IMG/VR virus record: IMGVR_UViG_3300030331_000212
Span: 1 to 24,321 of that record
Length of the DNA: 24,321 nt
Reading direction: 5' to 3' (one strand)
DNA from: a virus
Position 1 is the stretch's first letter. Each line of letters starts with the position of its first letter. The notes beneath the pieces were generated by a model. It worked only from the letters and a program-made list of their open reading frames with translations. It was not told where the DNA came from and did not search any database. Positions 163-10,942 of the stretch are shown here, piece by piece. A program made the translations under genes and the position numbers.

Positions 163-1164
163 ATGTCTGAATATAAAGGTATAAAGGGGTTTCAAGTTCA
201 AACCCGTGCAGAAGATCCAAGCGAACCAATCGTTGGAGACTTTTACTACAACTCTTCAACGGGACAATTTAAAACTGTGAACTCAGGCACTGGAAGCTGG
301 GCTAGCGGTGGAAATTTTCCAGGTCCTTATTATTTAAATGGTGGTTCAGGAGGAACCACAACAGCTGGTTGGACTGCAGCGGGAGCTTTATCTGGTAGTT
401 ACATTAATGAGTCCTACGAGTATGACGGAACTTCTTGGGGATCAGCCGTTAATATGAATAGAAATACTGGTGGTTATCTTGGTGGTTGTGGACCGCAGAT
501 TGCAGGTATAGCGGTATCAGGTTATTCAAATGCACCTCCTGCAGGAGACGTAACAGATTGTGAAACTTACAATGGCTCCTCTTGGACCAGCATCGCAGGT
601 TTACCAGCAGCTAGAAAAGAAAATACAACGGGTGGAACTGCTACAGCAGCGTTAGCCGCAGGAGGTGCTCATCCAGGGGGCACTGGAAACCAAGAGTATT
701 TTGTTTGGAATGGATCTTCTTGGACGGACAGTGGAAATATTAACACAGCAAGATCTAATGCTAACGCAGGTAATGGAATATCCACTTCTATGTTAGTTAT
801 AAGTGGAACTGACCCAACAACTACAGTTACAGAATCATGGAATGGTTCATCGTGGACTGAAATTGCAGAGGTAAATACAGGCAGGTATAGGGCACAAGCG
901 GCAGGCGTTAACAACTCAGATACTTTATTTTATTCAGGATCTTTAACTCCAGGAACTGCTCAAGCTAAAACAGAACAATGGAATGGATCAACTTGGACAG
1001 AGGTAGGAGATTTAGCACAAGCAAGAAAATGGCCCGGTGGAAATGGCACATCTTCAGCTGCTTGGGCAATGGGAGGAGACACTGGTCCAGGAAGTAGTGA
1101 AATAGCTACGACAGAAATATGGAATTTACCAGATTTTGAAACTAAAACAGTGACAACAACTTAA
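163..1164 (+). CDS. Kelch-repeat protein, one six-bladed beta-propeller (putative tail fibre / receptor-binding component)
   Basis: 333 aa. It has a short head (MSEYKGIKG, then GDFYYNSSTGQFK at about 25-37) followed by a kelch propeller. There are five internal W-motifs of the form [YW]NG(S/T)xWT with 'AALAxGG' turns between them. The strand GSWASGG near residue 44-50 and a closing TEIW near residue 317-320 would together make the sixth blade, the usual 'velcro' closure of a propeller. The C-terminus is a short Thr-rich tail (KTVTTT). No signal peptide or membrane segment is visible. Kelch propellers are binding scaffolds. The position among fibre-like and virion genes suggests a virion decoration or host-binding role, which is an inference. 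A similar head, blade pattern and tail recur in the two larger genes downstream, so the three are paralogues. Confidence 0.85.
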   Translation: MSEYKGIKGFQVQTRAEDPSEPIVGDFYYNSSTGQFKTVNSGTGSWASGGNFPGPYYLNGGSGGTTTAGWTAAGALSGSYINESYEYDGTSWGSAVNMNRNTGGYLGGCGPQIAGIAVSGYSNAPPAGDVTDCETYNGSSWTSIAGLPAARKENTTGGTATAALAAGGAHPGGTGNQEYFVWNGSSWTDSGNINTARSNANAGNGISTSMLVISGTDPTTTVTESWNGSSWTEIAEVNTGRYRAQAAGVNNSDTLFYSGSLTPGTAQAKTEQWNGSTWTEVGDLAQARKWPGGNGTSSAAWAMGGDTGPGSSEIATTEIWNLPDFETKTVTTT

Positions 1165-1166
1165 TT

Positions 1167-1211
1167 ATGATTTATAAACAAGTAAAAGGAGGAAGAAACT
1201 ATGGCATATAA
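1167..1211 (+). pseudogene. 15-codon remnant resembling the start of a lost propeller gene
   Basis: Directly after the first kelch gene the junction reads TTAATTATG (1161-1169), identical to the junction TTAATTATG (3303-3311) between the second and third kelch genes. The ATG at 1167 opens a 14-residue frame, MIYKQVKGGRNYGI, then TAA. Its beginning (M-I-Y-K-Q-V-K-G) matches the head of the other propeller proteins (M-A-T-Y-K-E-I-K-G). The frame runs through the ribosome binding site and first codons of the 94-aa gene. It may be the stump left when a propeller gene was deleted or replaced, or simply a chance mini-ORF. It is probably not functional as a protein. Confidence 0.45.
1184..1195 (+). 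promoter_or_regulatory. Strong Shine-Dalgarno site for the 94-aa gene
   Basis: The stretch AAAAGGAGGAAG contains a full AAGGAGG match to the anti-Shine-Dalgarno end of 16S rRNA, 8 nt before the ATG at 1201. Most other genes in the window have only weak purine runs or rely on overlap with the preceding stop. This fixes the start at 1201 and suggests high translation of the small protein. Confidence 0.85.
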
Positions 1212-1485
1212 ATACTGTACAGCGACTAACTGGGGTAAAAATTTTTTCACTCACGAAGAGAGAAAACATTTCCACCTTTCAGGTCATCCTGGTGAAGTAT
1301 GGGTTGTAGGCGATAATCTTTATGGTGATCAATGGATCGGTAAAGTAGCTGGTGCGATTAAAACAAAAGAAGAAGCACAAGCTATCGTTACTGGTAAAAT
1401 CGAAGAGGCGCAAGCTGCTTGGGATTCAGAGTCAGATGATTACAAAGCTAATCACCCAAGACCAGTAGTATATAATCTTCCATAG
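1201..1485 (+). CDS. Small conserved-looking protein of unknown function between propeller genes
   Basis: 94 aa, acidic to neutral and soluble, with no membrane segment. The N-terminal half is aromatic and His-rich (FFTHEERKHFHLSGHPGEVW, about 15-34), followed by VVGDNLYGDQWIGK. The C-terminal half is predicted helical (KTKEEAQAIV, then KIEEAQAAWDSE) and ends HPRPVVYNLP. I do not recognise the family. It has the best ribosome binding site in the window and sits inside the kelch gene cluster, so it could be a fibre chaperone, an adaptor between propeller proteins and the virion, or an abundant minor virion protein. These are inferences from position only. Its TAG stop is 9 nt before the next kelch gene, and both the stop and the next ATG lie in a small inverted repeat. 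Confidence 0.8.
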   Translation: MAYKYCTATNWGKNFFTHEERKHFHLSGHPGEVWVVGDNLYGDQWIGKVAGAIKTKEEAQAIVTGKIEEAQAAWDSESDDYKANHPRPVVYNLP

Positions 1486-1498
1486 TCTTAACCTATGG
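1480..1498 (+). promoter_or_regulatory. Inverted repeat spanning a stop codon and the next start codon
   Basis: CCATAG (1480-1485) and CTATGG (1493-1498) are perfect reverse complements separated by 7 nt. The left arm carries the TAG stop of the 94-aa gene and the right arm carries the ATG (1495) of the next propeller gene. In mRNA this 6-bp hairpin would cover the start codon unless a ribosome finishing the upstream gene opens it. No clear Shine-Dalgarno precedes the ATG, which fits translational coupling. The stem is short, so the effect may be modest. Confidence 0.4.
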
Positions 1499-3306
1499 CT
1501 AAGTATTCGGATATAAAAGGATTTACAGTCCAGACATTGTCATCAGACACTGTTGACAACGCTGTCCCTGTGGGAACATGGGCTAGTGGAGGTGCTTTAG
1601 GAACTGCAAGAGTTGCCAAAGGAAGTTCTGCAGGAACTCAAAATGCTTCGTCTGTTTTTGGTGGTCAAACTGCACCTGGCTTTACTGATATTCATGAACA
1701 GTACAACGGAAGTTCATGGACAACAGCTACAGAAATGACTACAGCAAGACTCACTAACGCTGGAGCAGGAACTTATAATTCCTCTTTTGCTCCAATGGGA
1801 AAAAATCCTAGCACTACAAGAGTTAATAATAATGAGGCTTGGAATGGTTCTTCATGGGCTGAATCTGCTGATGTAAACACTTCAAGAAGAGATGGCGGTG
1901 GAACAGGTGCTTCTCACACAAACGCAATAATTTTTGGAGGTTTTGAAGCTGATTCTCCTCCTGGCTCACAATCAGCTAAAACAGAAATTTATAATGGGTC
2001 AAGTTGGACAGAAACAGGAGATTTAGGCACAGCTAGATCTACGTCTGGTTCTGCCGGAGTAACAAGCACAGCTGCTTTATTTTTTGGACCACCTTCTAAA
2101 AATGAACAGTGGAATGGAGTGGCTTGGACGGAGCAAGCAGAATTAAATACAGGCAGACAATACGCAGGTGGAGCTGGGACATCCGTAGCTGCATTAGCGA
2201 TTGGTGGGGATGTAGATCCACCAATAACTGCAGCAACAGAATCTTGGAATGGAACTTCTTGGACAGAAGTAGCTGATCTTGCAACTGCAAGAAGACAAAA
2301 TTTTGGTTCAGGTGTTGATCTATTAGCTTTAGCATCAGGTGGATACACAACAACACAAGTTGCTAACACAGAAGAATTCACATCACCTGCAGTAGTTAAT
2401 CAAAAAAAAGAAGGACAAATATTTTTTAATTCAACAACAAATACTTATAAAGAAACGGTTCTTGATATTACAACAGGGACATGGTCATCAGGTCCTAAAA
2501 TGGTTAATAACAGAGGTACTAATCAGGGCAGTCACAGTGGAACACAAACTGATACTTTAGCAGCCGGTGGGTATCTTTCAAGTGCGTATACTGGTAAAAC
2601 AGAAAAATTTGATGGCACAACTTGGACAGAAACTGGAGATTTAGGCACCGGTAGAATTTACTCTGGCGCTTCAGTTAAAGGATCTACAACTGCTACATTA
2701 GTAGCGGGAGGAGAATCTCCAACAAAATCGAACACTGAACAATTTAATGGAGCTTCTTGGACAGAGGTTAATAATTTAAATCAATCAAAATGGGGACTTG
2801 CTGGTGGTGGAACCGAAAATGCTGCGCTAGTTTGGGCAGGATACACCACAGGGCCCGTGTCTTCTACAGAATCTTGGAACGGAGGAGCTTGGACAGAGGT
2901 TAATAATACAAATAGTGCAGGCTATGGTTCTGGTAATATTGGAACACAAACAGCAGCGTTATGCACGGGTCGCGCACCTAACCCTGTTAAAGATAAAATT
3001 GAAGAATGGAACGGAACTTCTTGGACTGAAGTAGCAGAGGCTAATTCAGCAAGATTTGGAGTTGCTGGTTTTGGTTTAAGTAGTTTGGCTGGAATAGCTG
3101 GAGGAAATCAAAACCCGCCTAGTTCTAGTGCTCTTACTGAAATATGGAATGGTAGTTCATGGACAGAAGTTTCAGATCTGGTAACAGGATCTACTCGATA
3201 TAATGCAGGAGCAGGTAGCTCATCAGCGGGTATATCTACAGTAAATGATGACACAGAGTTTTGGGATGTGATACAATTAAGTAATAAAACAATTACAGCG
3301 AGTTAA
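1495..3306 (+). CDS. Kelch-repeat protein with two tandem six-bladed propellers
   Basis: 603 aa built as two similar halves. The first half has the head MAKYSDIKGF, the opening strand TWASGG (28-33), five [YWF]NGxxWT motifs and the closing TEEF near residue 295. A hinge NQKKEGQIFFNSTTN begins near residue 302. The second half repeats the plan: TWSSGP near 329, five W-motifs (FDGTTW, FNGASW, WNGGAW, WNGTSW, WNGSSW), then the closing TEFW and the tail NKTITAS. Each half predicts a six-bladed propeller. The likely role is tail-fibre decoration or ligand binding, inferred from neighbours. The hinge is encoded by an A8 run (2402-2409) where a -1 slip would stop translation after propeller one. The gene ends 2 nt before the next kelch gene. 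Confidence 0.85.
   Translation: MAKYSDIKGFTVQTLSSDTVDNAVPVGTWASGGALGTARVAKGSSAGTQNASSVFGGQTAPGFTDIHEQYNGSSWTTATEMTTARLTNAGAGTYNSSFAPMGKNPSTTRVNNNEAWNGSSWAESADVNTSRRDGGGTGASHTNAIIFGGFEADSPPGSQSAKTEIYNGSSWTETGDLGTARSTSGSAGVTSTAALFFGPPSKNEQWNGVAWTEQAELNTGRQYAGGAGTSVAALAIGGDVDPPITAATESWNGTSWTEVADLATARRQNFGSGVDLLALASGGYTTTQVANTEEFTSPAVVNQKKEGQIFFNSTTNTYKETVLDITTGTWSSGPKMVNNRGTNQGSHSGTQTDTLAAGGYLSSAYTGKTEKFDGTTWTETGDLGTGRIYSGASVKGSTTATLVAGGESPTKSNTEQFNGASWTEVNNLNQSKWGLAGGGTENAALVWAGYTTGPVSSTESWNGGAWTEVNNTNSAGYGSGNIGTQTAALCTGRAPNPVKDKIEEWNGTSWTEVAEANSARFGVAGFGLSSLAGIAGGNQNPPSSSALTEIWNGSSWTEVSDLVTGSTRYNAGAGSSSAGISTVNDDTEFWDVIQLSNKTITAS
2402..2429 (+). other. A8 slippery run at the inter-propeller hinge with a nearby -1 frame stop
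   Basis: Bases 2402-2409 are eight A residues, read in the zero frame as CAA AAA AAA GAA. A -1 slip here reads AGA AGG ACA AAT ATT TTT and then TAA at 2427-2429. The product would be propeller one plus a six-codon tail, analogous to the dnaX-type frameshift that yields a shorter protein. No stimulatory stem or upstream Shine-Dalgarno was identified, and A8 runs occur elsewhere in this AT-rich sequence (5938-5945), so this is a candidate only. Confidence 0.35.
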
Positions 3307-3308
3307 TT

Positions 3309-5123
3309 ATGGCAACATACAAGGAAATAAAAGGCGTAACAATACAAACATATGACGAGGATCCAGTTCAAAATGTTGGAAGCTGGGCATCTGGTGTAGG
3401 TATTGGAACAGCCAGAGATTCTTTAGCTGGCGCTGGTATTCAAACTGCAACTATTGCAATGGGTGGACGAAATCCAGGAACTTCTTATATAGATCTTGTT
3501 GAAAAATATGATGGCACTTCTTGGTCAGAAGTAAGTGAAATAAACACTGCAAGAAAATTATTAGGGGGAGCAGGAACCTCAACACAAGCTTTAGCTTTTG
3601 CAGGCAGAAAATCTCCGGGTGATACTAACGTAACAGACACAGAGTCTTGGGATGGTTCAAGTTGGTCAGAAGTAAATGAGATGAACACTGCAAGAGGTCA
3701 ATTGGGAGGCGCTGGAGCAACTTACCAATCAGCGTTAGCTGCTGGTGGTGGAACTCCATCTGCATCAAACGCCACAGAACAATGGACAGGGACATCTTGG
3801 GCAAATCAACCTAATATGAACAGTAGTAGAAGAAATGTTCCACTTAGTGGAACGGTGACTGCAGCTTTATTAGCAGGTGGAGAGGACGGACCTCAAGAGA
3901 GAATAGAAACTTGGAATGGCACAGGTTGGACTGAAGTAACAGAGGCTAATAATACAAGATACGCTGGATCATTATCTTGTAATGGTACAAGTTCAAGCAC
4001 ACTTTATTTTGGTGGAACTTCACCACCCGGTTCAGCAATTGCAAACACAGAAGATTGGAATGGAGCGGCCTGGACAGAAGTGAACGATCTTGCTTCTGTA
4101 AAAGAATACGCTGCAGGAACTGGTACAGCTACTGTTGCTTTTTCTTTTGGAGGAAGTCCGGACGCATCTGGAGCAGCGACAGAGGAATGGTCTTTCCCGC
4201 CAATAACATCTCCTTTTTTAAAAGAAGGTATGTTGTTTACAGATTCAACTAATACAACGTTAAAAGCTTTTGGAAAAGCGGCTGGAATACCAACAGCAAC
4301 ATGGTCCTCTGGTGGAAGTTTAAATACTGCAAGAAGAGGTTGTAGAGGAGCAGGTAGTAATACCTCCGGATTATGTTTTGGTGGACCAGGCGCATCGCAA
4401 GGAAAATTAACTGAAAAATATGATGGATCTTCGTGGACTGTAGCAAATGAGTTAAATGCAATAAAAAATAATTCTGGTGCGTTTGGAACGCAAGGAAATG
4501 CACTTTGTATAGATGAAAGTGCTGTTGAACAATGGAATGGTAGCACTTGGGCTGAAACTACTGAAATCAACACTGATAGAACAAGTCTTTGTGGGGCTAC
4601 AGGTCCGTACACTGCTGGAATAATATTTGGTGGGTACACTTCAACGTACGCAGCAAACACAGAAACTTGGAATGGAACTGGGTGGACTACACAAGAAAAT
4701 TTAAATAATGCAAGATCAACTGGAGGTGGTGCTGGTTTAAGTTCATCAGATGCCATAGCTATTATGGGAGATAGTAACCCATACACTAGTTCATATGTGG
4801 AAGAGTGGAACGGAACAAATTGGACTGAGGTTTCACAAGCTAACACGGGTAGGTATTATATTGGTGCTAGTGGAGCAAGTTCTAAAGGTGCATTAGCTTT
4901 TGGTGGTCTTACCACAACAGCTGTTAATAACACAGAATCTTGGAATGGGGCGGCCTGGACAGAAGTTAATAATTTATCAGCTGCCAGATTTACAGGTGCA
5001 TCCGGAAATGTAGGGTCTCAAAATTTATCAGCATTTCTTGCTGGTGGTGGAACTCCCGATGTTGCAAGCACTGAAGAATGGCAAATTGATGATTCTGTGC
5101 TATCTACGGTAACTCTATCGTAG
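3309..5123 (+). CDS. Kelch-repeat protein with two tandem six-bladed propellers (second copy)
   Basis: 604 aa, paralogous along its whole length to the preceding gene. It has the head MATYKEIKGVTIQT and the opening strand SWASGV (27-32). The five W-motifs of half one are YDGTSW, WDGSSW, WTGTSW, WNGTGW and WNGAAW, closed by TEEW. A hinge FLKEGMLFTDSTN lies near 302-315. Half two has ATWSSGG near 330, five further W-motifs and a closing TEEW, then the tail LSTVTLS. Both halves predict six blades. The gene follows the previous stop by 2 nt, so translation is probably coupled. It is the last gene before the promoter at 5126. The role in host binding or fibre decoration is inferred from position. 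The hinge here is preceded by a T6 run rather than A8, so the slippery site is not conserved between the two paralogues. Confidence 0.85.
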   Translation: MATYKEIKGVTIQTYDEDPVQNVGSWASGVGIGTARDSLAGAGIQTATIAMGGRNPGTSYIDLVEKYDGTSWSEVSEINTARKLLGGAGTSTQALAFAGRKSPGDTNVTDTESWDGSSWSEVNEMNTARGQLGGAGATYQSALAAGGGTPSASNATEQWTGTSWANQPNMNSSRRNVPLSGTVTAALLAGGEDGPQERIETWNGTGWTEVTEANNTRYAGSLSCNGTSSSTLYFGGTSPPGSAIANTEDWNGAAWTEVNDLASVKEYAAGTGTATVAFSFGGSPDASGAATEEWSFPPITSPFLKEGMLFTDSTNTTLKAFGKAAGIPTATWSSGGSLNTARRGCRGAGSNTSGLCFGGPGASQGKLTEKYDGSSWTVANELNAIKNNSGAFGTQGNALCIDESAVEQWNGSTWAETTEINTDRTSLCGATGPYTAGIIFGGYTSTYAANTETWNGTGWTTQENLNNARSTGGGAGLSSSDAIAIMGDSNPYTSSYVEEWNGTNWTEVSQANTGRYYIGASGASSKGALAFGGLTTTAVNNTESWNGAAWTEVNNLSAARFTGASGNVGSQNLSAFLAGGGTPDVASTEEWQIDDSVLSTVTLS

Positions 5124-5125
5124 AC

Positions 5126-5153
5126 TTGACCTTTATATAGAAAGATATATAAA
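5126..5153 (+). promoter_or_regulatory. Sigma70-like promoter for the oxygenase/ParB operon
   Basis: TTGACC (5126-5131), a 16-nt spacer, then TATAAA (5148-5153), all just after the stop of the last propeller gene. Transcription would begin near 5160. That leaves room for the AAAGGAG ribosome binding site at 5169-5175 before the ATG at 5181, but not for initiation with a leader at the upstream ATG (5163). The element splits the fibre genes from the six-gene cassette that follows. Confidence 0.6.
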
Positions 5154-5180
5154 GAGATTAGAATGAATAAAGGAGATAGA

Positions 5181-5846
5181 ATGTCAAAAGAAAAACGTAA
5201 TATAGCTACTAAGCTAGAAACAGAGTCAAAGTATTTAACAAACATTTTAGACAAAGACGATGTTAAAAATTTTAAAAAATTAATACCAGAACTACAAGAT
5301 ACATGGATGAAAAAACAAATGTTTCGTACAGAAACAGAAATGAGATTCTCTGTGTTATCAGATAATAAATATCCAACCAAAGCTGCAAAGTATTGGCAAT
5401 CTGTAAGAGAACAGAATACACACTTTGAAAACTTAGTTCACTTATCATTTGATGCTAGAAAGAATGATGTTGAGATAAAAAAATTACAAAGAGATATTAA
5501 AAAAGAAAAAGATTCATTAGAGAAAGAAATGAAACAAGTTGAGCTAGAGGAAAAATTATATCATAAAGCACAAATGGAGTTGGTCGCTAAACATAGGATG
5601 AGAGAAGTTTCTCTTTGGTCTAAACTTAAAAAAGAATTTGATGATGGCAACTTTGATAAAGAAGATGTAAACACGCATCAAGCTAAATCATATTTATTAA
5701 GATTTCAAAAATCAAAAGAAACAATAACTCCTGGCACATCACAACCAGAAGTGTTTAATATCATGGGTCAATTAGAAGCTTTAGAAAAAGGATTAAGAGA
5801 AAATACTTTATCTTTAAATGATAAAAAAACTAAAAAATTAAAATGA
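5181..5846 (+). CDS. Coiled-coil protein heading the oxygenase operon
   Basis: 221 aa, highly charged and helical. I chose the ATG at 5181 because AAAGGAG lies 5 nt upstream. The alternative ATG at 5163 lacks a good site and sits almost at the predicted transcription start. A core reads YPTKAAKYWQSVREQNTHFE and is followed by a long Lys/Glu heptad-like stretch (about residues 98-155), then LVAKHRMREVSLWSKLKKEF. I recall similar proteins from cyanophages and other marine phages as hypotheticals near 2OG-Fe(II) oxygenases, but I know of no assigned function. The TGA stop overlaps the next ATG (ATGA). It may be a scaffold or adaptor for the enzymes downstream, which is inference only. Confidence 0.75.
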   Translation: MSKEKRNIATKLETESKYLTNILDKDDVKNFKKLIPELQDTWMKKQMFRTETEMRFSVLSDNKYPTKAAKYWQSVREQNTHFENLVHLSFDARKNDVEIKKLQRDIKKEKDSLEKEMKQVELEEKLYHKAQMELVAKHRMREVSLWSKLKKEFDDGNFDKEDVNTHQAKSYLLRFQKSKETITPGTSQPEVFNIMGQLEALEKGLRENTLSLNDKKTKKLK

Positions 5847-6505
5847 AGTTTGACTTTGTCTATTTAGGGCAAACTGTTTTAAAATATGAAGTGCCCCTGG
5901 ATATATTCGTAGGTCTTAATGAAATCTATGAAAAACAAAAAAAACAGTTACCAAAAGCAAATAAACAATTAGTAGGTAAAATACAAGATGAAGTGTCTTT
6001 GTATTATTCTGGTCCTAACAACGATAAAATGCATCAACATTGTTTTGTGCCAAGTGATATACTTGGATGGTTTCACTCTGTATTTGATCACTATACAAAT
6101 TGGAATAAAATAGGACAAAACCAAAAATCAATAAATTCTATTTGGGTTAATGAAATGAAAGCACATGAATATAATCCTGTGCACATACACCAAGGTAAAC
6201 TTTATACAGGACTATCGTCTGTAATGATTTTAAAATTACCCAAAGACACAGGTGTTGAATACTCTGCTCCAAGTAAACCTATGAATGGTAGACTTCAAAT
6301 TATTGGTTCATCTAACGGACAATTTTCTAAAACAGATTATTCACCGAACATGAAGATAGGGGATTTTTATGTTTTCCCTTATGACATGAGACACTGCGTT
6401 TATCCATTTAACGGAACTAAAGAAGTTAGGAGAACATTAGTTTGTAATGTAGATGTAGATTATAACCCAATAGCTTCAAGAACTGGATCGGGGCAAAAAG
6501 AATGA
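5843..6505 (+). CDS. 2OG-Fe(II) oxygenase-like protein, HxH type (first of four)
   Basis: 220 aa. The C-terminal half has the double-stranded beta-helix signature of 2-oxoglutarate/Fe(II) dioxygenases. It shows NPVHIHQG with H114 and H116, then the strand LSSVMILKLP, a later strand GDFYVFPYDMRHCVYPF with distal H184, and Arg196/197 (EVRRTLVCNVDV) positioned to bind the 2-oxoglutarate carboxylate. The proximal metal motif is H-x-H rather than the canonical H-x-D/E, as I recall for the phage family related to Pfam 2OG-FeII_Oxy_5. The N-terminal half (1-100) is helical and charged. Both ends overlap neighbours by ATGA. Such enzymes couple 2OG decarboxylation to hydroxylation of a protein or base; the substrate here is unknown. 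Confidence 0.75.
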   Translation: MKFDFVYLGQTVLKYEVPLDIFVGLNEIYEKQKKQLPKANKQLVGKIQDEVSLYYSGPNNDKMHQHCFVPSDILGWFHSVFDHYTNWNKIGQNQKSINSIWVNEMKAHEYNPVHIHQGKLYTGLSSVMILKLPKDTGVEYSAPSKPMNGRLQIIGSSNGQFSKTDYSPNMKIGDFYVFPYDMRHCVYPFNGTKEVRRTLVCNVDVDYNPIASRTGSGQKE

Positions 6506-7089
6506 TACCAAAAATGCCACGATGGCAATCTTATGTTGCCACAACTACACAACCCATGTTTACACCTGAACAATGTAAAATGATTATAGATGCTGGTCAT
6601 CAATGTGCACCTGAGCAAGCTAAAGTGGGTGGTGGAGATAAAGGACAATATGATACGAAGAAACGAGTCACAACAATTTCTTGGATACCTTTTAATAAAT
6701 TACCACAAATGTACAAAGTTATTGAAAATCAATTATCTATTGTAAACTTAAATCATTTTTATTTTGATGGTGTCAAAATTACAGAACCTGCACAGTTTAC
6801 GGTGTACCCTAAAAAAGGCTTTTATGATTGGCATATGGATCTTAATGCGTTTGGTCAAGATGGAGGAAACCCAATACGTAAAATATCTATGACATTATTA
6901 TTGTCAGATCCATCAGAGTTTACAGGTGGGGATCTTTTATTTTCAGAGATGGGGGAACATAAACCATTATCTTTAAAACAAGGACAAGCTATATTTTTTG
7001 CATCATTCTTAAGACACAAAGTTGCACCTGTTAAAAAAGGCGTGAGAAAATCTTTAGTCATGTGGTTTGGAGGGCCACCATTTAAATGA
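6502..7089 (+). CDS. 2OG-Fe(II) oxygenase, PKHD/prolyl-hydroxylase-like (second of four)
   Basis: 195 aa with the clearest catalytic set of the cassette: FTVYPKKGFYDWHMD with H111 and D113, the strand RKISMTLLLSDPSEFTGGDL (GGDL at 142-145), the distal His in FLRHKVAPV (H172) and Arg182 (VRKSLVMWFGG) for 2-oxoglutarate. The order and spacing match the PiuC/YbiX and prolyl-4-hydroxylase-like class. The protein is about the length of a single catalytic domain, with no substrate-binding extension. The ATG overlaps the preceding stop (ATGA), as does its own stop with the next gene, so translation is coupled. The likely activity is hydroxylation of a protein side chain, but a nucleic acid substrate cannot be excluded. 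Confidence 0.85.
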   Translation: MIPKMPRWQSYVATTTQPMFTPEQCKMIIDAGHQCAPEQAKVGGGDKGQYDTKKRVTTISWIPFNKLPQMYKVIENQLSIVNLNHFYFDGVKITEPAQFTVYPKKGFYDWHMDLNAFGQDGGNPIRKISMTLLLSDPSEFTGGDLLFSEMGEHKPLSLKQGQAIFFASFLRHKVAPVKKGVRKSLVMWFGGPPFK

Positions 7090-7700
7090 GTAAGTTACAA
7101 AGAAAAATATTATTTCCAACTGCTGTTTATTTTAAAGATATACCTAACGCTAAAGAACTTAATAAATATTTATTTAAAGAAATAAAAAAGTGGCGCAAAA
7201 AATTTCCAGAAGGTGAAAAGAAGACTAACTCTGGCTATGGTTGGCACAGCCCAACAGACATGAATGAAAAAAAAGAATATCAACCTCTTATTAATGAATT
7301 ATTTCAAATGGCATACGAGTGTAACAAAGATTATGGTATATCAGGTAAATTAGGCCTTGGTAATATGTGGGCTAATATTAACCCAACATACAGTTATAAT
7401 AAAACACATACACATCCTAACTCTATGTGGTCAGGTGTATATTATATTAAAGTGCCTAAGAATTCAGGCAAGTTGTTTTTAGAAGATCCTAGACCAGGAC
7501 CTAATATGCATATGCCTAGAAGAGTAGATAATTTACCAGAACAACTGTGGAGAGTGTGTGCTTATGAACCGTTAGAAGGACGTATGATCTTTTTTCCATC
7601 TTGGCTCCCTCATGGTGTTGACATAAATATGAATACAGACAAAGGTGAAAAAAATTGGAGAATATCTGTGTCTTATAACTTTATACAAGTACCAGAATGA
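7086..7700 (+). CDS. 2OG-Fe(II) oxygenase, 2OG-FeII_Oxy_5-like (third of four)
   Basis: 204 aa that match the phage oxygenase family well. It begins with LFPTAVYFKDIP, has the conserved NxxxxYNKTHTHPNSMWSGVYY core (H108 and H110), KLFLEDPRPG, then GRMIFFPSWLPHGVDIN with distal H176, and Arg192 (NWRISVSYNFI). The metal motif is again H-x-H. This family is common in marine and cyanophage genomes and is thought to hydroxylate proteins; I know of no proven substrate. It overlaps both neighbours by ATGA. The first gene of the set shares the HxH feature but is otherwise quite different in sequence, so a recent duplication is unlikely. Confidence 0.85.
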   Translation: MSKLQRKILFPTAVYFKDIPNAKELNKYLFKEIKKWRKKFPEGEKKTNSGYGWHSPTDMNEKKEYQPLINELFQMAYECNKDYGISGKLGLGNMWANINPTYSYNKTHTHPNSMWSGVYYIKVPKNSGKLFLEDPRPGPNMHMPRRVDNLPEQLWRVCAYEPLEGRMIFFPSWLPHGVDINMNTDKGEKNWRISVSYNFIQVPE

Positions 7701-8122
7701 CAACTTTAGTTTACGCTAAATTACCTTTTTCACAAATACATTATCTAGAGCGACCAGAGTTTCACAATGAAGAAAAAGTTTTTAAAAGTAGACTACTTAA
7801 GTCATTAAAAGAACACGGTATTGTAGATCCTTTATATGCAGAAGTAGGAAATGATTATGGTAGATATATAAAAATAATTGTAGGCAATAATAGAATGGCT
7901 GTGGCTAAAATTTTAGGGATAAAAATAATACCTGTCATTGTTAATATTTATGATCCTACTTTTAAATTAGAGGGCACTCAATGTCGTGAGTTAAAAACCG
8001 ATGATGAAATTAGAAAATTGTTTACACATAAAACTGTAAACATTAGACGTAATAAAGATGGTAACATTGACACTATCATGCCCCCTCGTTATGATTTAGT
8101 ATATAAAGATTATGAGTTTTAA
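7697..8122 (+). CDS. Stand-alone ParB/sulfiredoxin-fold protein
   Basis: 141 aa. The N-terminal 85 residues resemble a ParB N-terminal domain: LPFSQIHYLERPEF, then LLKSLKEHGIVDPLYAEV, then the nucleotide-binding box IVGNNRMAVAKILGIKIIPVIV (GxxR at G63-R66). There is no helix-turn-helix DNA-binding domain, so it is not a partition protein. The tail (86-141) is charged, with NIRRNKDGNID and PPRYDLVY. ParB-fold domains bind or hydrolyse nucleotides; known members include CTPases, sulfiredoxin and a free-serine kinase (SerK), and some are called nucleases. Here it lies between two 2OG oxygenases and overlaps the third by 4 nt and the fourth by 11 nt, which suggests a shared pathway. Acting on hydroxylated products is a hypothesis. 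Confidence 0.75.
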   Translation: MTTLVYAKLPFSQIHYLERPEFHNEEKVFKSRLLKSLKEHGIVDPLYAEVGNDYGRYIKIIVGNNRMAVAKILGIKIIPVIVNIYDPTFKLEGTQCRELKTDDEIRKLFTHKTVNIRRNKDGNIDTIMPPRYDLVYKDYEF

Positions 8123-8765
8123 AAAAAATAAATATCAAGTTATACGTGGTGCTATATCTAAAGAAATAGCAAATGTAGCGTATAGATATTTACAAATATC
8201 AGCAGAGGCAGATCACTGGATGTTAGAAAATGGTTTGACTCACACAGCCAATAAACTTGCAGGTGTTTTTAACGATCCTCAAGTTCCAGGCTCTTACGCT
8301 AAGTATGCAGATCGTTTAATGGAAACTTTACTTATTAAAACAATTCCTATTATGCAGAAAAAAACAGGATTAAAGTTAGTGCCTACCTATTCTTACACAA
8401 GACTATATAGAAAAGGTAATGTATTAAATAGACATAAAGATAGGCCTAGCTGTGAGATATCTACTACACTAAACCTAGGTGGAGATAACTGGCCTATATT
8501 TATCGATCCTACGGGGTCTGACAACGTTATAGACGAGCGTAAAGGTATGAATAAGCATGGAGCACCCAATGGTATAAAAGTAGATTTAAAACCAGGAGAT
8601 ATGCTTATTTACTCTGGTTGTGATTTAGAGCATTGGAGAGAACCTTTTCAAGGCCGTCTATGTGGTCAAGTATTTTTGCACTATAATCATGCAGATGGAC
8701 AGTTTGCAAAGTCTAATTTGTATGATAAAAGACCTATATTGGGTGTACCCAAAACTCGTTGGTAA
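8112..8765 (+). CDS. 2OG-Fe(II) oxygenase (fourth of four)
   Basis: 217 aa. Catalytic residues: YSYTRLYRKGNVLNRHKDRP gives H108 and D110, followed by CEISTTLNLGGDNWPIFID; GDMLIYSGCDLEHWREPF gives distal H174; GRLCGQVFLHYNH gives Arg182. This is the canonical HxD...H...R arrangement. The N-terminal 90 residues are helical, with a KYQVIRGAISKEIANVAYRY opening of the kind seen in phage oxygenases that act after a small helical lid. It starts inside the end of the ParB-fold gene (11-nt overlap) and is the last gene of the cassette; 41 nt with an inverted repeat follow. Substrate unknown. Confidence 0.8.
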   Translation: MSFKKNKYQVIRGAISKEIANVAYRYLQISAEADHWMLENGLTHTANKLAGVFNDPQVPGSYAKYADRLMETLLIKTIPIMQKKTGLKLVPTYSYTRLYRKGNVLNRHKDRPSCEISTTLNLGGDNWPIFIDPTGSDNVIDERKGMNKHGAPNGIKVDLKPGDMLIYSGCDLEHWREPFQGRLCGQVFLHYNHADGQFAKSNLYDKRPILGVPKTRW

Positions 8766-8806: not shown

Positions 8807-10942
8807 ATGGCGTTACAAAAAGTACAATTTTTACCTGGATTCAATAAACAACTAACTGCAACCCAAGCTGAGGGTCAATGGGTGGATGGTGATAACGTTA
8901 GGTTTAGATACTCTACACCAGAAAAAATAGGTGGCTGGTCACAATTAGGTGAGAATAAATTAACTGGTGCAGCTAGAGCAATGCATCACATTGTTAATAA
9001 ATCAGGTAACAAGTTTTCTATTATAGGAACCAACAGAATTTTATACGCGTACTCAGGTGGTGTGTTTTATGATATACACCCTATTCGAGCAACTACAACT
9101 TTATCTAATGCTTTTTCAACCACAAATAATTCAGCGGTAGTTACAATAACATTTTCATCAGATCATAATCTCCAAGCCAATGATATTATATTATTAGATA
9201 ACTTTTCTACGATCACTAACTCTAATTTTGGTGCTTCTGATTTTAATGATAAAACATTTATGGTTACTTCTATAGTATCCTCAACAGCTATTACCATCAC
9301 TATGCCAACAACTGATGGTGGCTCTGGAGCTACCACTTCTGGTGGCATAAGAGTTCAATCTTATTATAGTGTTGGACCTGCAGGGCAACTTCCTGGATTT
9401 GGTTGGAGTTTAGGTCAGTGGGGCGGAACTGTATCAGGTGAGGCTACAACAAGTTTAAATGGTGGTATCAATGCTTCAACGACAACAATTGTTTTATCTG
9501 ATGCTTCTTTGTTTCCTTCATCAGGAACAAGTTTTATTCAAATAGGAAATGAAGAAATTTCTTACACAGGTATTTCTGGTAACACTTTAACAGGTGTAAC
9601 AAGAGGAGTCAGAAACACCACGGCTGCATCTCACTCGAACGCAGATACCGTAATTAACTCTACAGACTATGTAGCGTGGGGCGAGGCTGCATCTGGTGAC
9701 TTAGTTGTTGATCCAGGTATGTGGTCAATAGATAACTTTGGTGATAAAATTATAGCCTTAATACATAATGGACAAGTATTTGAGTGGGATTCAAATGCAT
9801 CTAATGCTACGTCAACAAGAGCCACAATTATTTCAGGTGCTCCGACAGCGTCGAGAGACATGATCGTGTCTACACCAGATAGACACTTAGTATTTTTTGG
9901 AACAGAAACAACAATAGGGGATCAGTCTACACAAGATCAAATGTTTATTAGATTTTCTAACCAAGAGGATATTAATACTTACACACCTACAGCAACCAAC
10001 ACAGCAGGCACACAGAGACTTGCGGATGGTTCTAGAATTGTAGGAGCTGTTAGAGGTAGAGATGCAATCTATGTTTGGACTGACACCGCATTATTTACAA
10101 TGCGTTTTATTGGTCCACCTTTTACTTTTGGTTTTACACAAGTAGGTACTAACTGTGGATTGATAGGACAGAATGCAGCTGTTGAAGTTGATGGTGCTGC
10201 GTACTGGATGTCAGAAAATGGTTTCTTTAAATATGCTGGTGCTCTTCAAACGTTACCATGTTTAGTAGAAGACTTTGTTTATAACAATTTAAACACAACA
10301 GCTTCACAATTAATCAATGCAGGATTAAATAATTTGTTTGGTGAAATTAATTGGTTTTATTGCACAGAGAACTCTACGGTTGTAGATAGGTGTGTGACTT
10401 ATAATTATCAAGAGTCCTCTCCAGAAAGACCAATATGGACAACTGGTACGTTAGATAGAACAACGTGGCAAGACTCTTCTGTATTTGGTAAACCGCATGC
10501 AACAGACTATGACGCTGATTCAAACACATCTTATGATGTTGTTGGTAATACTGATGGTTGCACTATATACTATGAGCATGAAACTGGCACGGATCAAGTT
10601 ACATCAACTGCGGTAACTGCGGTAACTGCAAATATACAATCTGGAGACTTTGATATAAGTCAAGGTGGAGACGGTGAGTTCTTTGCAAAAATAAGAAGAT
10701 TTATACCTGACTTTTTATCTCAAACAGGAAATACGCAGGTAACATTAAATTTAAGAAACTTTTCTAATAGCACTCAAGCAAGCTCACCACTTGGTCCATT
10801 TACAGTTACGTCATCTACAACTAAAGTGGATACACGAGCTAGAGCAAGAGCTGTGTCATTAAAGATAGCAAATACAGGATCATCACAGAACTGGAAACTT
10901 GGTGGATTTAGATTAGACATACAACCAGACGGAAGAAGATAA
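8807..10942 (+). CDS. Large virion protein, probable tail nozzle/tubular protein with two inserted beta domains
   Basis: 711 aa. The opening MALQKVQFLPGFNKQ, then WVDGDNVRFRYSTPEKIGGW (25-44) is the typical start of a large structural protein of marine podoviruses that I compare to P22 gp10 and T7 gp12 nozzle proteins; the rest is beta-rich with no membrane segment. Two segments look like insertions: about 95-183 (Ser/Thr-rich, HNLQANDIILLDNF) and about 214-285 (SLFPSSGTSFIQIGNEEISY, then GNTLTGVTRG), the latter a module I recall from other phage proteins. GGAGG at 8799-8803 supports the start. The gene overlaps the next by 1 nt (TAATG). Known nozzle proteins form the hexameric end of the short tail; this role is inferred here. 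Confidence 0.65.
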   Translation: MALQKVQFLPGFNKQLTATQAEGQWVDGDNVRFRYSTPEKIGGWSQLGENKLTGAARAMHHIVNKSGNKFSIIGTNRILYAYSGGVFYDIHPIRATTTLSNAFSTTNNSAVVTITFSSDHNLQANDIILLDNFSTITNSNFGASDFNDKTFMVTSIVSSTAITITMPTTDGGSGATTSGGIRVQSYYSVGPAGQLPGFGWSLGQWGGTVSGEATTSLNGGINASTTTIVLSDASLFPSSGTSFIQIGNEEISYTGISGNTLTGVTRGVRNTTAASHSNADTVINSTDYVAWGEAASGDLVVDPGMWSIDNFGDKIIALIHNGQVFEWDSNASNATSTRATIISGAPTASRDMIVSTPDRHLVFFGTETTIGDQSTQDQMFIRFSNQEDINTYTPTATNTAGTQRLADGSRIVGAVRGRDAIYVWTDTALFTMRFIGPPFTFGFTQVGTNCGLIGQNAAVEVDGAAYWMSENGFFKYAGALQTLPCLVEDFVYNNLNTTASQLINAGLNNLFGEINWFYCTENSTVVDRCVTYNYQESSPERPIWTTGTLDRTTWQDSSVFGKPHATDYDADSNTSYDVVGNTDGCTIYYEHETGTDQVTSTAVTAVTANIQSGDFDISQGGDGEFFAKIRRFIPDFLSQTGNTQVTLNLRNFSNSTQASSPLGPFTVTSSTTKVDTRARARAVSLKIANTGSSQNWKLGGFRLDIQPDGRR
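10607..10629 (+). repeat. Short in-frame tandem repeat in the nozzle-like gene
   Basis: The 9-mer ACTGCGGTA occurs twice in tandem (10607-10624), followed by a partial third copy (ACTGC). It is in frame and encodes TAVTAVTA in a Thr-rich loop. It may expand or contract by slippage without breaking the gene. Confidence 0.85.

What the first reader, a model, noticed from the sequence alone, without database searches (positions are those of the whole stretch)
5126..8765. Six-gene accessory operon: coiled-coil protein, four distinct 2OG-Fe(II) oxygenases and a lone ParB-fold protein
Seen: six genes, each overlapping the next (four ATGA junctions, one 11-nt overlap), with their own promoter (TTGACC-N16-TATAAA), inserted between propeller genes and the nozzle gene. 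Known: marine phages often carry one or two 2OG oxygenases; four unlike ones in one coupled unit with a ParB-fold protein is more than I expect. Inference: the products act on one substrate in sequence, either DNA bases (hydroxylation, then further modification) or proteins such as the propellers or a host target.
Basis: partly seen in the sequence, partly recalled or inferred. Interest (0 to 1): 0.75.

Follow-up and report, generated by a model that had tools for sequence, protein, structure and literature searches.

The report
Phage tail-propeller gene cassette with oxygenases
Uncultured marine phages carry four oxygen-using enzymes in a fixed gene set directly behind genes for propeller-shaped proteins, and the set moves as a unit between unrelated phage types, which suggests that the enzymes chemically finish those propellers rather than alter DNA.

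Summary
In detail: six overlapping ORFs (5163-8765) encode a helical protein (A), four 2OG-Fe(II)-type oxygenases (B, C, D, F) and a lone ParB-fold protein (E). F belongs to a PHROG named "ferrochelatase"; its model has the prolyl-hydroxylase fold and an invariant HxD...H. Two published ecological readings rest on that misleading name.

In uncultured marine viruses A-B-C-D-F form a fixed cassette behind the Kelch-type double propellers. Starting from propellers alone, 32 of 33 contigs with at least 4 kb downstream carry A, B, C, D and F. A follows a propeller in 63 of 64. Propellers plus A-F recur in four phage backbones, including T4-like ones. ParB is optional (16/56, 33/139 and 3/33 contigs). 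Some relatives add sulfotransferases, a kinase or further oxygenases. A sister lineage with a different fibre at the same slot has other oxygenases, tryptophan halogenases and carbamoyltransferases.

Best reading (about 50%): a late cassette that modifies the phage's own propeller/fibre proteins after translation. Shown: gene content, folds, linkage, purifying selection. Inferred: substrate, chemistry, effect. DNA modification is unlikely. Oxygenase clusters in pelagiphages are already published; the fixed coupling to a propeller adhesin is what is new.

The parts
163..1164 (+). single (half-length) Kelch-type propeller protein
   Evidence: phrog_27227 C-terminal half, 5.1e-51
1201..1485 (+). 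94-aa protein kept between propeller genes in relatives (x94)
   Evidence: present in most propeller loci
1495..3306 (+). double propeller 1
   Evidence: phrog_27227 7e-139; alignment A8
3309..5123 (+). double propeller 2, proposed substrate
   Evidence: phrog_27227 2.8e-137; AF2 pLDDT 83, all-beta; top PDB folds are mostly Kelch propellers
5126..5153 (+). probable promoter TTGACC-N16-TATAAA
   Evidence: similar site in 55/60 distinct upstream sequences of relatives; consensus sites alone are at chance level
5163..5846 (+). A: conserved 227-aa K/E-rich helical (coiled-coil) protein, unknown family
   Evidence: many invariant columns in 16 relatives; pN/pS 0.145; no match in cultured phages
5843..6505 (+). 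B: PF13759 oxygenase, HxH...H...R (H114, H116, H184, R196)
6502..7089 (+). C: PF13640 PKHD/prolyl-hydroxylase-type oxygenase, HxD...H...R (H111, D113, H172, R182)
7086..7700 (+). D: PF13759/TIGR02466 oxygenase, HxH...H...R (H108, H110, H176, R192)
7697..8122 (+). E: lone ParB N-terminal-fold protein, optional gene
   Evidence: present in 33/139 contigs with both D and F
8112..8765 (+). F: phrog_2954 'ferrochelatase', in fact a 2OG-oxygenase fold, HxD...H (H108, D110, H174)
8807..10942 (+). virion structural (nozzle/stabilisation) gene, right border in this backbone
   Evidence: phrog_3287 1.4e-111

Best explanation
The operon is the enzyme half of an adhesin cassette. The propeller genes make Kelch-type double propellers, probably receptor-binding tail parts. 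A-B-C-D-F, transcribed from their own promoter just behind them, modify these propellers after translation. B, C, D and F would each use Fe(II), O2 and 2-oxoglutarate to hydroxylate side chains in the repeated blades, and A would hold the enzymes or the nascent propellers. E (ParB fold) and, in relatives, sulfotransferases, a kinase and extra oxygenases are optional decorations. SHOWN: gene content, order, folds, metal-site residues, coupling to propellers, spread through four backbones, purifying selection. INFERRED: catalytic activity, substrate, role of A and E, that propellers are receptor-binding, benefit (stability, or altered binding or escape).
For: Propeller-seeded scan, blind to the enzymes: A is the next gene in 54/56; A, B, C, D and F all present in 32/33 contigs with at least 4 kb downstream. 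A has a propeller directly upstream in 63/64. Propellers plus A-F occur in four backbones: nozzle podovirus, T4-like (L362: F then gp13/gp14), M15/phosphoesterase type (L105, L107, L108), L301/L304. In nozzle phages without a detected propeller the same slot holds Gly-rich fibre proteins with other oxygenases, Trp halogenases or carbamoyltransferases, so enzymes appear to change with the adhesin. Inserts inside the cassette are tailoring-type enzymes: Sulfotransfer_3 with an APS-kinase-like P-loop kinase and a nucleotidyltransferase, Sulfotransfer_2, more 2OG enzymes. F and C resemble protein prolyl hydroxylases most. Enzymes are conserved (pN/pS 0.13-0.22 for A, B, C, D, F) while propellers differ (about 40% identity).
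Against: No modified propeller residue is known. Fold resemblance to prolyl hydroxylases does not set the substrate; antibiotic-tailoring enzymes (HygX, SnoN) rank nearly as high. L112 has the cassette beside early genes with no propeller in its 23-kb record, and L388 has propellers without A in its 11-kb record. Linkage could reflect joint transfer rather than joint function. Virion location of the propellers is inferred from neighbours and fold.
Confidence: 0.5

Rival explanations
1. Auxiliary metabolic genes: the oxygenases change host metabolism (2-oxoglutarate level, nutrient use) and sit behind tail genes because that is a tolerated cargo slot.
For: This is the published view for marine phage 2OG genes (PMC9602691, PMC9599517, PMC11561400). 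Sister phages carry varied oxygenases in the same slot.
Against: Cargo in a slot should reassort; here five genes keep order and propeller linkage through four backbones. The 'ferrochelatase' partner that supported an iron/haem story is another oxygenase.
Confidence: 0.2
2. The enzymes modify host surface or regulatory proteins, or a host glycan, for example to block superinfection, and are only co-inherited with the receptor-binding proteins.
For: Superinfection-exclusion genes often sit beside adhesin genes (general knowledge). Sulfotransferases and carbamoyltransferases also act on glycans (general knowledge).
Against: No signal for a membrane or secreted role was looked for or seen; a host target would not require that five genes stay behind propellers in four phage types.
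Confidence: 0.17
3. DNA modification: the oxygenases hydroxylate bases and the ParB-fold protein handles or further modifies DNA.
For: 2OG enzymes of the TET/JBP class oxidise thymine or 5-methylcytosine, ParB folds are often DNA-associated, and some HTVC023P-type clades have thymine hypermodification genes (PMC9599517).
Against: No thymidylate synthase or ThyX in nine long records that carry module genes or propellers (the HMUDK_hel search rang nowhere and is not informative). ParB is absent from most cassettes. B, C and D match PF13759/PF13640, not Tet_JBP. The published hypermodification genes lie near PolA, not here.
Confidence: 0.07
4. The cassette is a selfish or chance block of genes without joint function.
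For: High mobility between backbones.
Against: Strong purifying selection on A, B, C, D and F (pN/pS 0.13-0.22), invariant metal-site residues, tight overlapping ORFs.
Confidence: 0.04

Closest known systems
2OG-Fe(II) oxygenase clusters of HTVC023P-type pelagiphages (PMC9599517)
   Same: several non-orthologous oxygenases plus phrog_2954 'ferrochelatase' in the same phage group
   Different: the paper calls the oxygenases nearby though not adjacent, treats F-type genes as ferrochelatases and, in the passages read here, gives no link to an adhesin; propeller and A have no match in the phage records searched
Oxygenase row beside tail-fibre and neck genes of HTVC008M and Mosig (T4-like pelagiphages)
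   Same: 4-5 oxygenases in a row including an F homologue (43-48% identical), beside tail genes
   Different: no A and no propeller; Mosig has a phrog_2295 protein there; other oxygenase set; Mosig adds haem oxygenase and bilin reductase genes
Bacterial prolyl 4-hydroxylase (P. putida P4H that binds EF-Tu; 4iw3, 4j25) and PKHD-type hydroxylases (PiuC, 3dkq)
   Same: fold of F and sequence profile of C
   Different: 12-14% identity for F; substrate unknown
TIGR02466/PF13759 proteins 3bvc and 2rg4
   Same: D belongs to this family, including HxH in place of HxD
   Different: those are uncharacterised bacterial proteins
Marine viral halogenase (Gkotsi 2019, cited in PMC10452541)
   Same: flavin-dependent halogenases (PF04820) sit in the same slot of sister phages
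   Different: native substrate unknown; not in this cassette

Membership tests
2OG-Fe(II) oxygenase superfamily: C and F | HxD...H metal triad conserved | tested here: met
   C H111/D113/H172 invariant in 29 sequences; F H108/D110/H174 invariant in 35
2OG-Fe(II) oxygenase superfamily: C and F | double-stranded beta-helix fold | tested here: met
   F model pLDDT 92.7, top PDB hits P4H, HygX, PHD2; C by profile to P4H/PKHD structures
2OG-Fe(II) oxygenase superfamily: B and D | 2-His-1-carboxylate triad (HxD/E...H) | tested here: not met
   HxH...H in B and D; also in PDB relatives of D. Filed by sequence as PF13759, so metal site and 2OG use need a bench test
2OG-Fe(II) oxygenase superfamily | 2OG-dependent oxygen transfer | not testable with these tools
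   needs enzyme assay
Ferrochelatase (PHROG name of F) | PF00762 similarity or chelatase fold | tested here: not met
   F and seven other members have no PF00762 hit; none of the 50 best folds is a ferrochelatase
ParB CTP-clamp partition protein (E) | ParB N-terminal fold | tested here: met
   profile E 8e-12 to ParB family structures
ParB CTP-clamp partition protein (E) | GERR nucleotide motif, helix-turn-helix and C-terminal dimer domain, parA partner | tested here: not met
   GNNR instead of GERR; the match covers only about residues 8-90 of 141 aa; no parA-like family reported in the window
Thymine hypermodification system | thymidylate-synthase homologue with aGPT-PPlase or hmU kinase | tested here: not met
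   no PF00303 or PF02511 in nine long records, which may be fragments; PF18723 search uninformative; aGPT-PPlase not searched
Adhesin-modification cassette (proposed) | near-obligate linkage to adhesin genes across backbones | tested here: met
   32/33, 63/64 and four backbones; two exceptions, L112 and L388
Adhesin-modification cassette (proposed) | adhesin carries enzyme-dependent modification | not testable with these tools
   needs virion or recombinant mass spectrometry

The most novel reading that the evidence does not exclude
Abundant marine phages encode dedicated, swappable post-translational tailoring systems for their own receptor-binding proteins. Each adhesin type travels with its own enzyme set (multiple hydroxylases for propellers; hydroxylases plus halogenase, sulfotransferase or carbamoyltransferase for Gly-rich fibres), giving virion surfaces a chemistry not written in the genome sequence.
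Probability: 0.4. Interest if true: 0.87.

Novelty: new variant of a known kind. Interest (0 to 1): 0.62.

Why it matters
2OG oxygenases are among the commonest accessory genes of marine phages, yet their substrate has not been shown in the papers read here; they are usually filed as metabolic genes. The fixed cassette names a concrete substrate candidate (the propellers) that can be tested by co-expression and mass spectrometry. It also shows that the "ferrochelatase" reported as a seasonal or iron-related marker of pelagiphages (phrog_2954) is an oxygenase fold, which removes a haem/iron interpretation from the literature.

Tried and rejected
Ferrochelatase reading of F: rejected. UPF0489/peptide-arginase idea for the 202-aa ORF in L031: no Pfam or NCBIfam hit, dropped. 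PAPS-making trio (nucleotidyltransferase, kinase, sulfotransferase): kept only as a suggestion, because kinase and nucleotidyltransferase hits are under NCBIfam cut-offs and the nucleotidyltransferase looks closest to NMN adenylyltransferases. Homology of A to the small gene upstream of oxygenases in HTVC023P and 023Pt_psg01: none. Phage-scaffold hit of A (0.041): not significant. ParB as an essential partner: rejected, optional. HMUDK_hel search rang nowhere, controls included, so it was not used.
Full report
OBSERVATION. The six ORFs exist at the given place: A 5163-5846, B 5843-6505, C 6502-7089, D 7086-7700, E 7697-8122, F 8112-8765. Four junctions are ATGA overlaps and one overlap is 11 nt. 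B and D match PF13759, C matches PF13640, E gives a ParB_N hit just under cut-off. F has no significant Pfam match; PHROGs calls its family (phrog_2954) ferrochelatase. Promoter-like consensus sites in the first 20 kb are no commoner than in shuffled sequence (65 vs 65.6), but a site of this kind is kept in 55 of 60 distinct upstream sequences of relatives. In L031, L077 and L255 a terminator-like hairpin sits in the same gap instead.

WHAT THE PROTEINS ARE. Alignments give the metal-site residues: C HxD 111/113, H172, R182; F HxD 108/110, H174 invariant in 35 relatives, including phage proteins annotated as ferrochelatase; B HxH 114/116, H184, R196; D HxH 108/110, H176, R192. HxH is also present in the solved relatives of D, 3bvc and 2rg4, so it is a property of that family; whether these use a three-histidine iron site is open. 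C is closest to PKHD-type and prolyl hydroxylases. The AlphaFold model of F (pLDDT 92.7) matches prolyl 4-hydroxylase, HygX and PHD2; none of the 50 best folds is a ferrochelatase, and no tested member matches the ferrochelatase Pfam model. F is therefore a fourth oxygenase. E has only the ParB N-terminal fold (8e-12 to a ParB structure), with GNNR where ParB has GERR and no sign of a DNA-binding part. A is a conserved K/E-rich protein with heptad periodicity in residues 71-140, without family.

GENE ORDER IN RELATIVES. Scans of viral contigs with E, F, the nozzle protein, A, B, D and a propeller profile gave about 400 loci. After grouping loci of the first six scans that share an exact 250-base stretch (217 groups), all 56 contigs that span last propeller to nozzle have A-B-C-D-(E)-F in that order; E is present in 16, and in 33 of 139 contigs with D and F. 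The propeller scan is the fairest test because it did not use the enzymes. A is the next gene in 54 of 56, and all of A, B, C, D and F follow in 32 of 33 contigs with at least 4 kb downstream, E in 3. The one failure, L370, has B, C, D and F but no recognisable A there. Conversely A has a propeller directly upstream in 63 of 64. The exception is L112, where the cassette lies among early genes and no propeller is found in its 23-kb record. L388 has propellers without A in its 11-kb record.

MOBILITY. Propellers with A-F occur in at least four settings: before the nozzle gene; before T4-like neck genes gp13/gp14 (L362, with partial views L028, L070, L093); before an M15 peptidase and phosphoesterase (L105, L107, L108); and before a different set of structural genes (L301, L304). 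The T4-like and other gene names here were read from the sequences by eye and used as search queries; they were not run against a family library. Neither A nor the propeller has a match in 50,697 phage records, so this form is known here only from uncultured phages. The nearest cultured or sequenced phages (HTVC023P, 023Pt_psg01, HTVC033P, Mosig) have another fibre-like protein, phrog_2295, beside their oxygenase rows.

OPTIONAL PARTS. Inside the cassette relatives insert Sulfotransfer_3 usually with a P-loop kinase and sometimes a nucleotidyltransferase, a second sulfotransferase, other ParB-fold proteins, or further 2OG enzymes. In the loci examined, E and the second ParB type were not seen together. 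In nozzle phages in which no propeller was detected, the slot holds Gly-rich fibre proteins with different oxygenases, and Trp halogenase or NodU-type carbamoyltransferase genes.

SELECTION. Median pN/pS against the window genes is 0.13-0.15 for A, B, C and D, 0.22 for F, 0.34 for E, 0.27 for the nozzle protein and 0.70 for propeller 2. The propeller value mixes paralogues, pS is close to saturation, and these are uncorrected proportions; only the ranking is used.

MECHANISM. The evidence is best explained if the enzymes serve the propellers: linkage to one adhesin, independence from backbone, and tailoring-type optional enzymes. The propeller is modelled as an all-beta protein that matches Kelch propellers over about half its length, in keeping with two propellers of repeated blades, which would offer many equivalent sites. 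This is inference; no modification is known. DNA modification is weakly supported: nine long records carrying module genes or propellers lack thymidylate synthase and ThyX, and ParB is optional. A metabolic role remains the main rival because it is the published reading of such genes.

PRIOR KNOWLEDGE. Clusters of unlike 2OG oxygenases with "ferrochelatase" were reported in HTVC023P-type phages (PMC9599517); phrog61 and phrog2954 are enriched in seasonal viruses (PMC11561400); a cyanophage has 24 such genes, whose function in viruses the authors say has not been specifically investigated (PMC9602691); structural similarity of phage 2OG enzymes to prolyl hydroxylases is known (PMC12774648). In the searches made here I found no report of the propeller link, of the cassette in several backbones, or of F being misnamed; the library holds only part of the literature.

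LIMITS. Contigs are fragments; seeds other than the propeller scan favour contigs that hold the module; counts are of non-identical groups (first six scans) or of loci (propeller scan), not of independent events; AlphaFold models rest on 30 sequences each; the window record is 25 kb. The host is inferred as SAR11 only by kinship with pelagiphages.

Noticed in passing
L161:3327-4862; also L116, L160, L165, L175, L180, L181, L191: Trp halogenase (PF04820) genes lie beside oxygenases in the slot upstream of the nozzle gene in phages where no propeller was detected; possible natural context for viral halogenases.
   Followed up: partly
L143:4489-6002, L094:4719-6260, L191: Sulfotransferase, APS-kinase/PSTK-like P-loop kinase and small nucleotidyltransferase travel together and occur both with and without propellers; suggests sulfation.
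   Followed up: partly
L171:1868-3481; L161: NodU/CmcH-type carbamoyltransferase gene near Gly-rich fibre and oxygenase genes.
   Followed up: no
L031:9374-9982: 202-aa ORF between D and ParB without any family match.
   Followed up: partly
L112 (record G002): A-F cassette among early/replication-type genes with no propeller in a 23-kb record.
   Followed up: partly
L370: One contig with B, C, D and F behind a propeller at one end and a second propeller-A unit at the other.
   Followed up: no
L031, L077, L255, gap before A: Terminator-like hairpin (AAGAGATTATCTCTT) in place of the conserved promoter-like element.
   Followed up: no
window 1201-1485: Small 94-aa protein kept between propeller genes in most relatives, no PHROG match; probably part of the adhesin cassette.
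   Followed up: no
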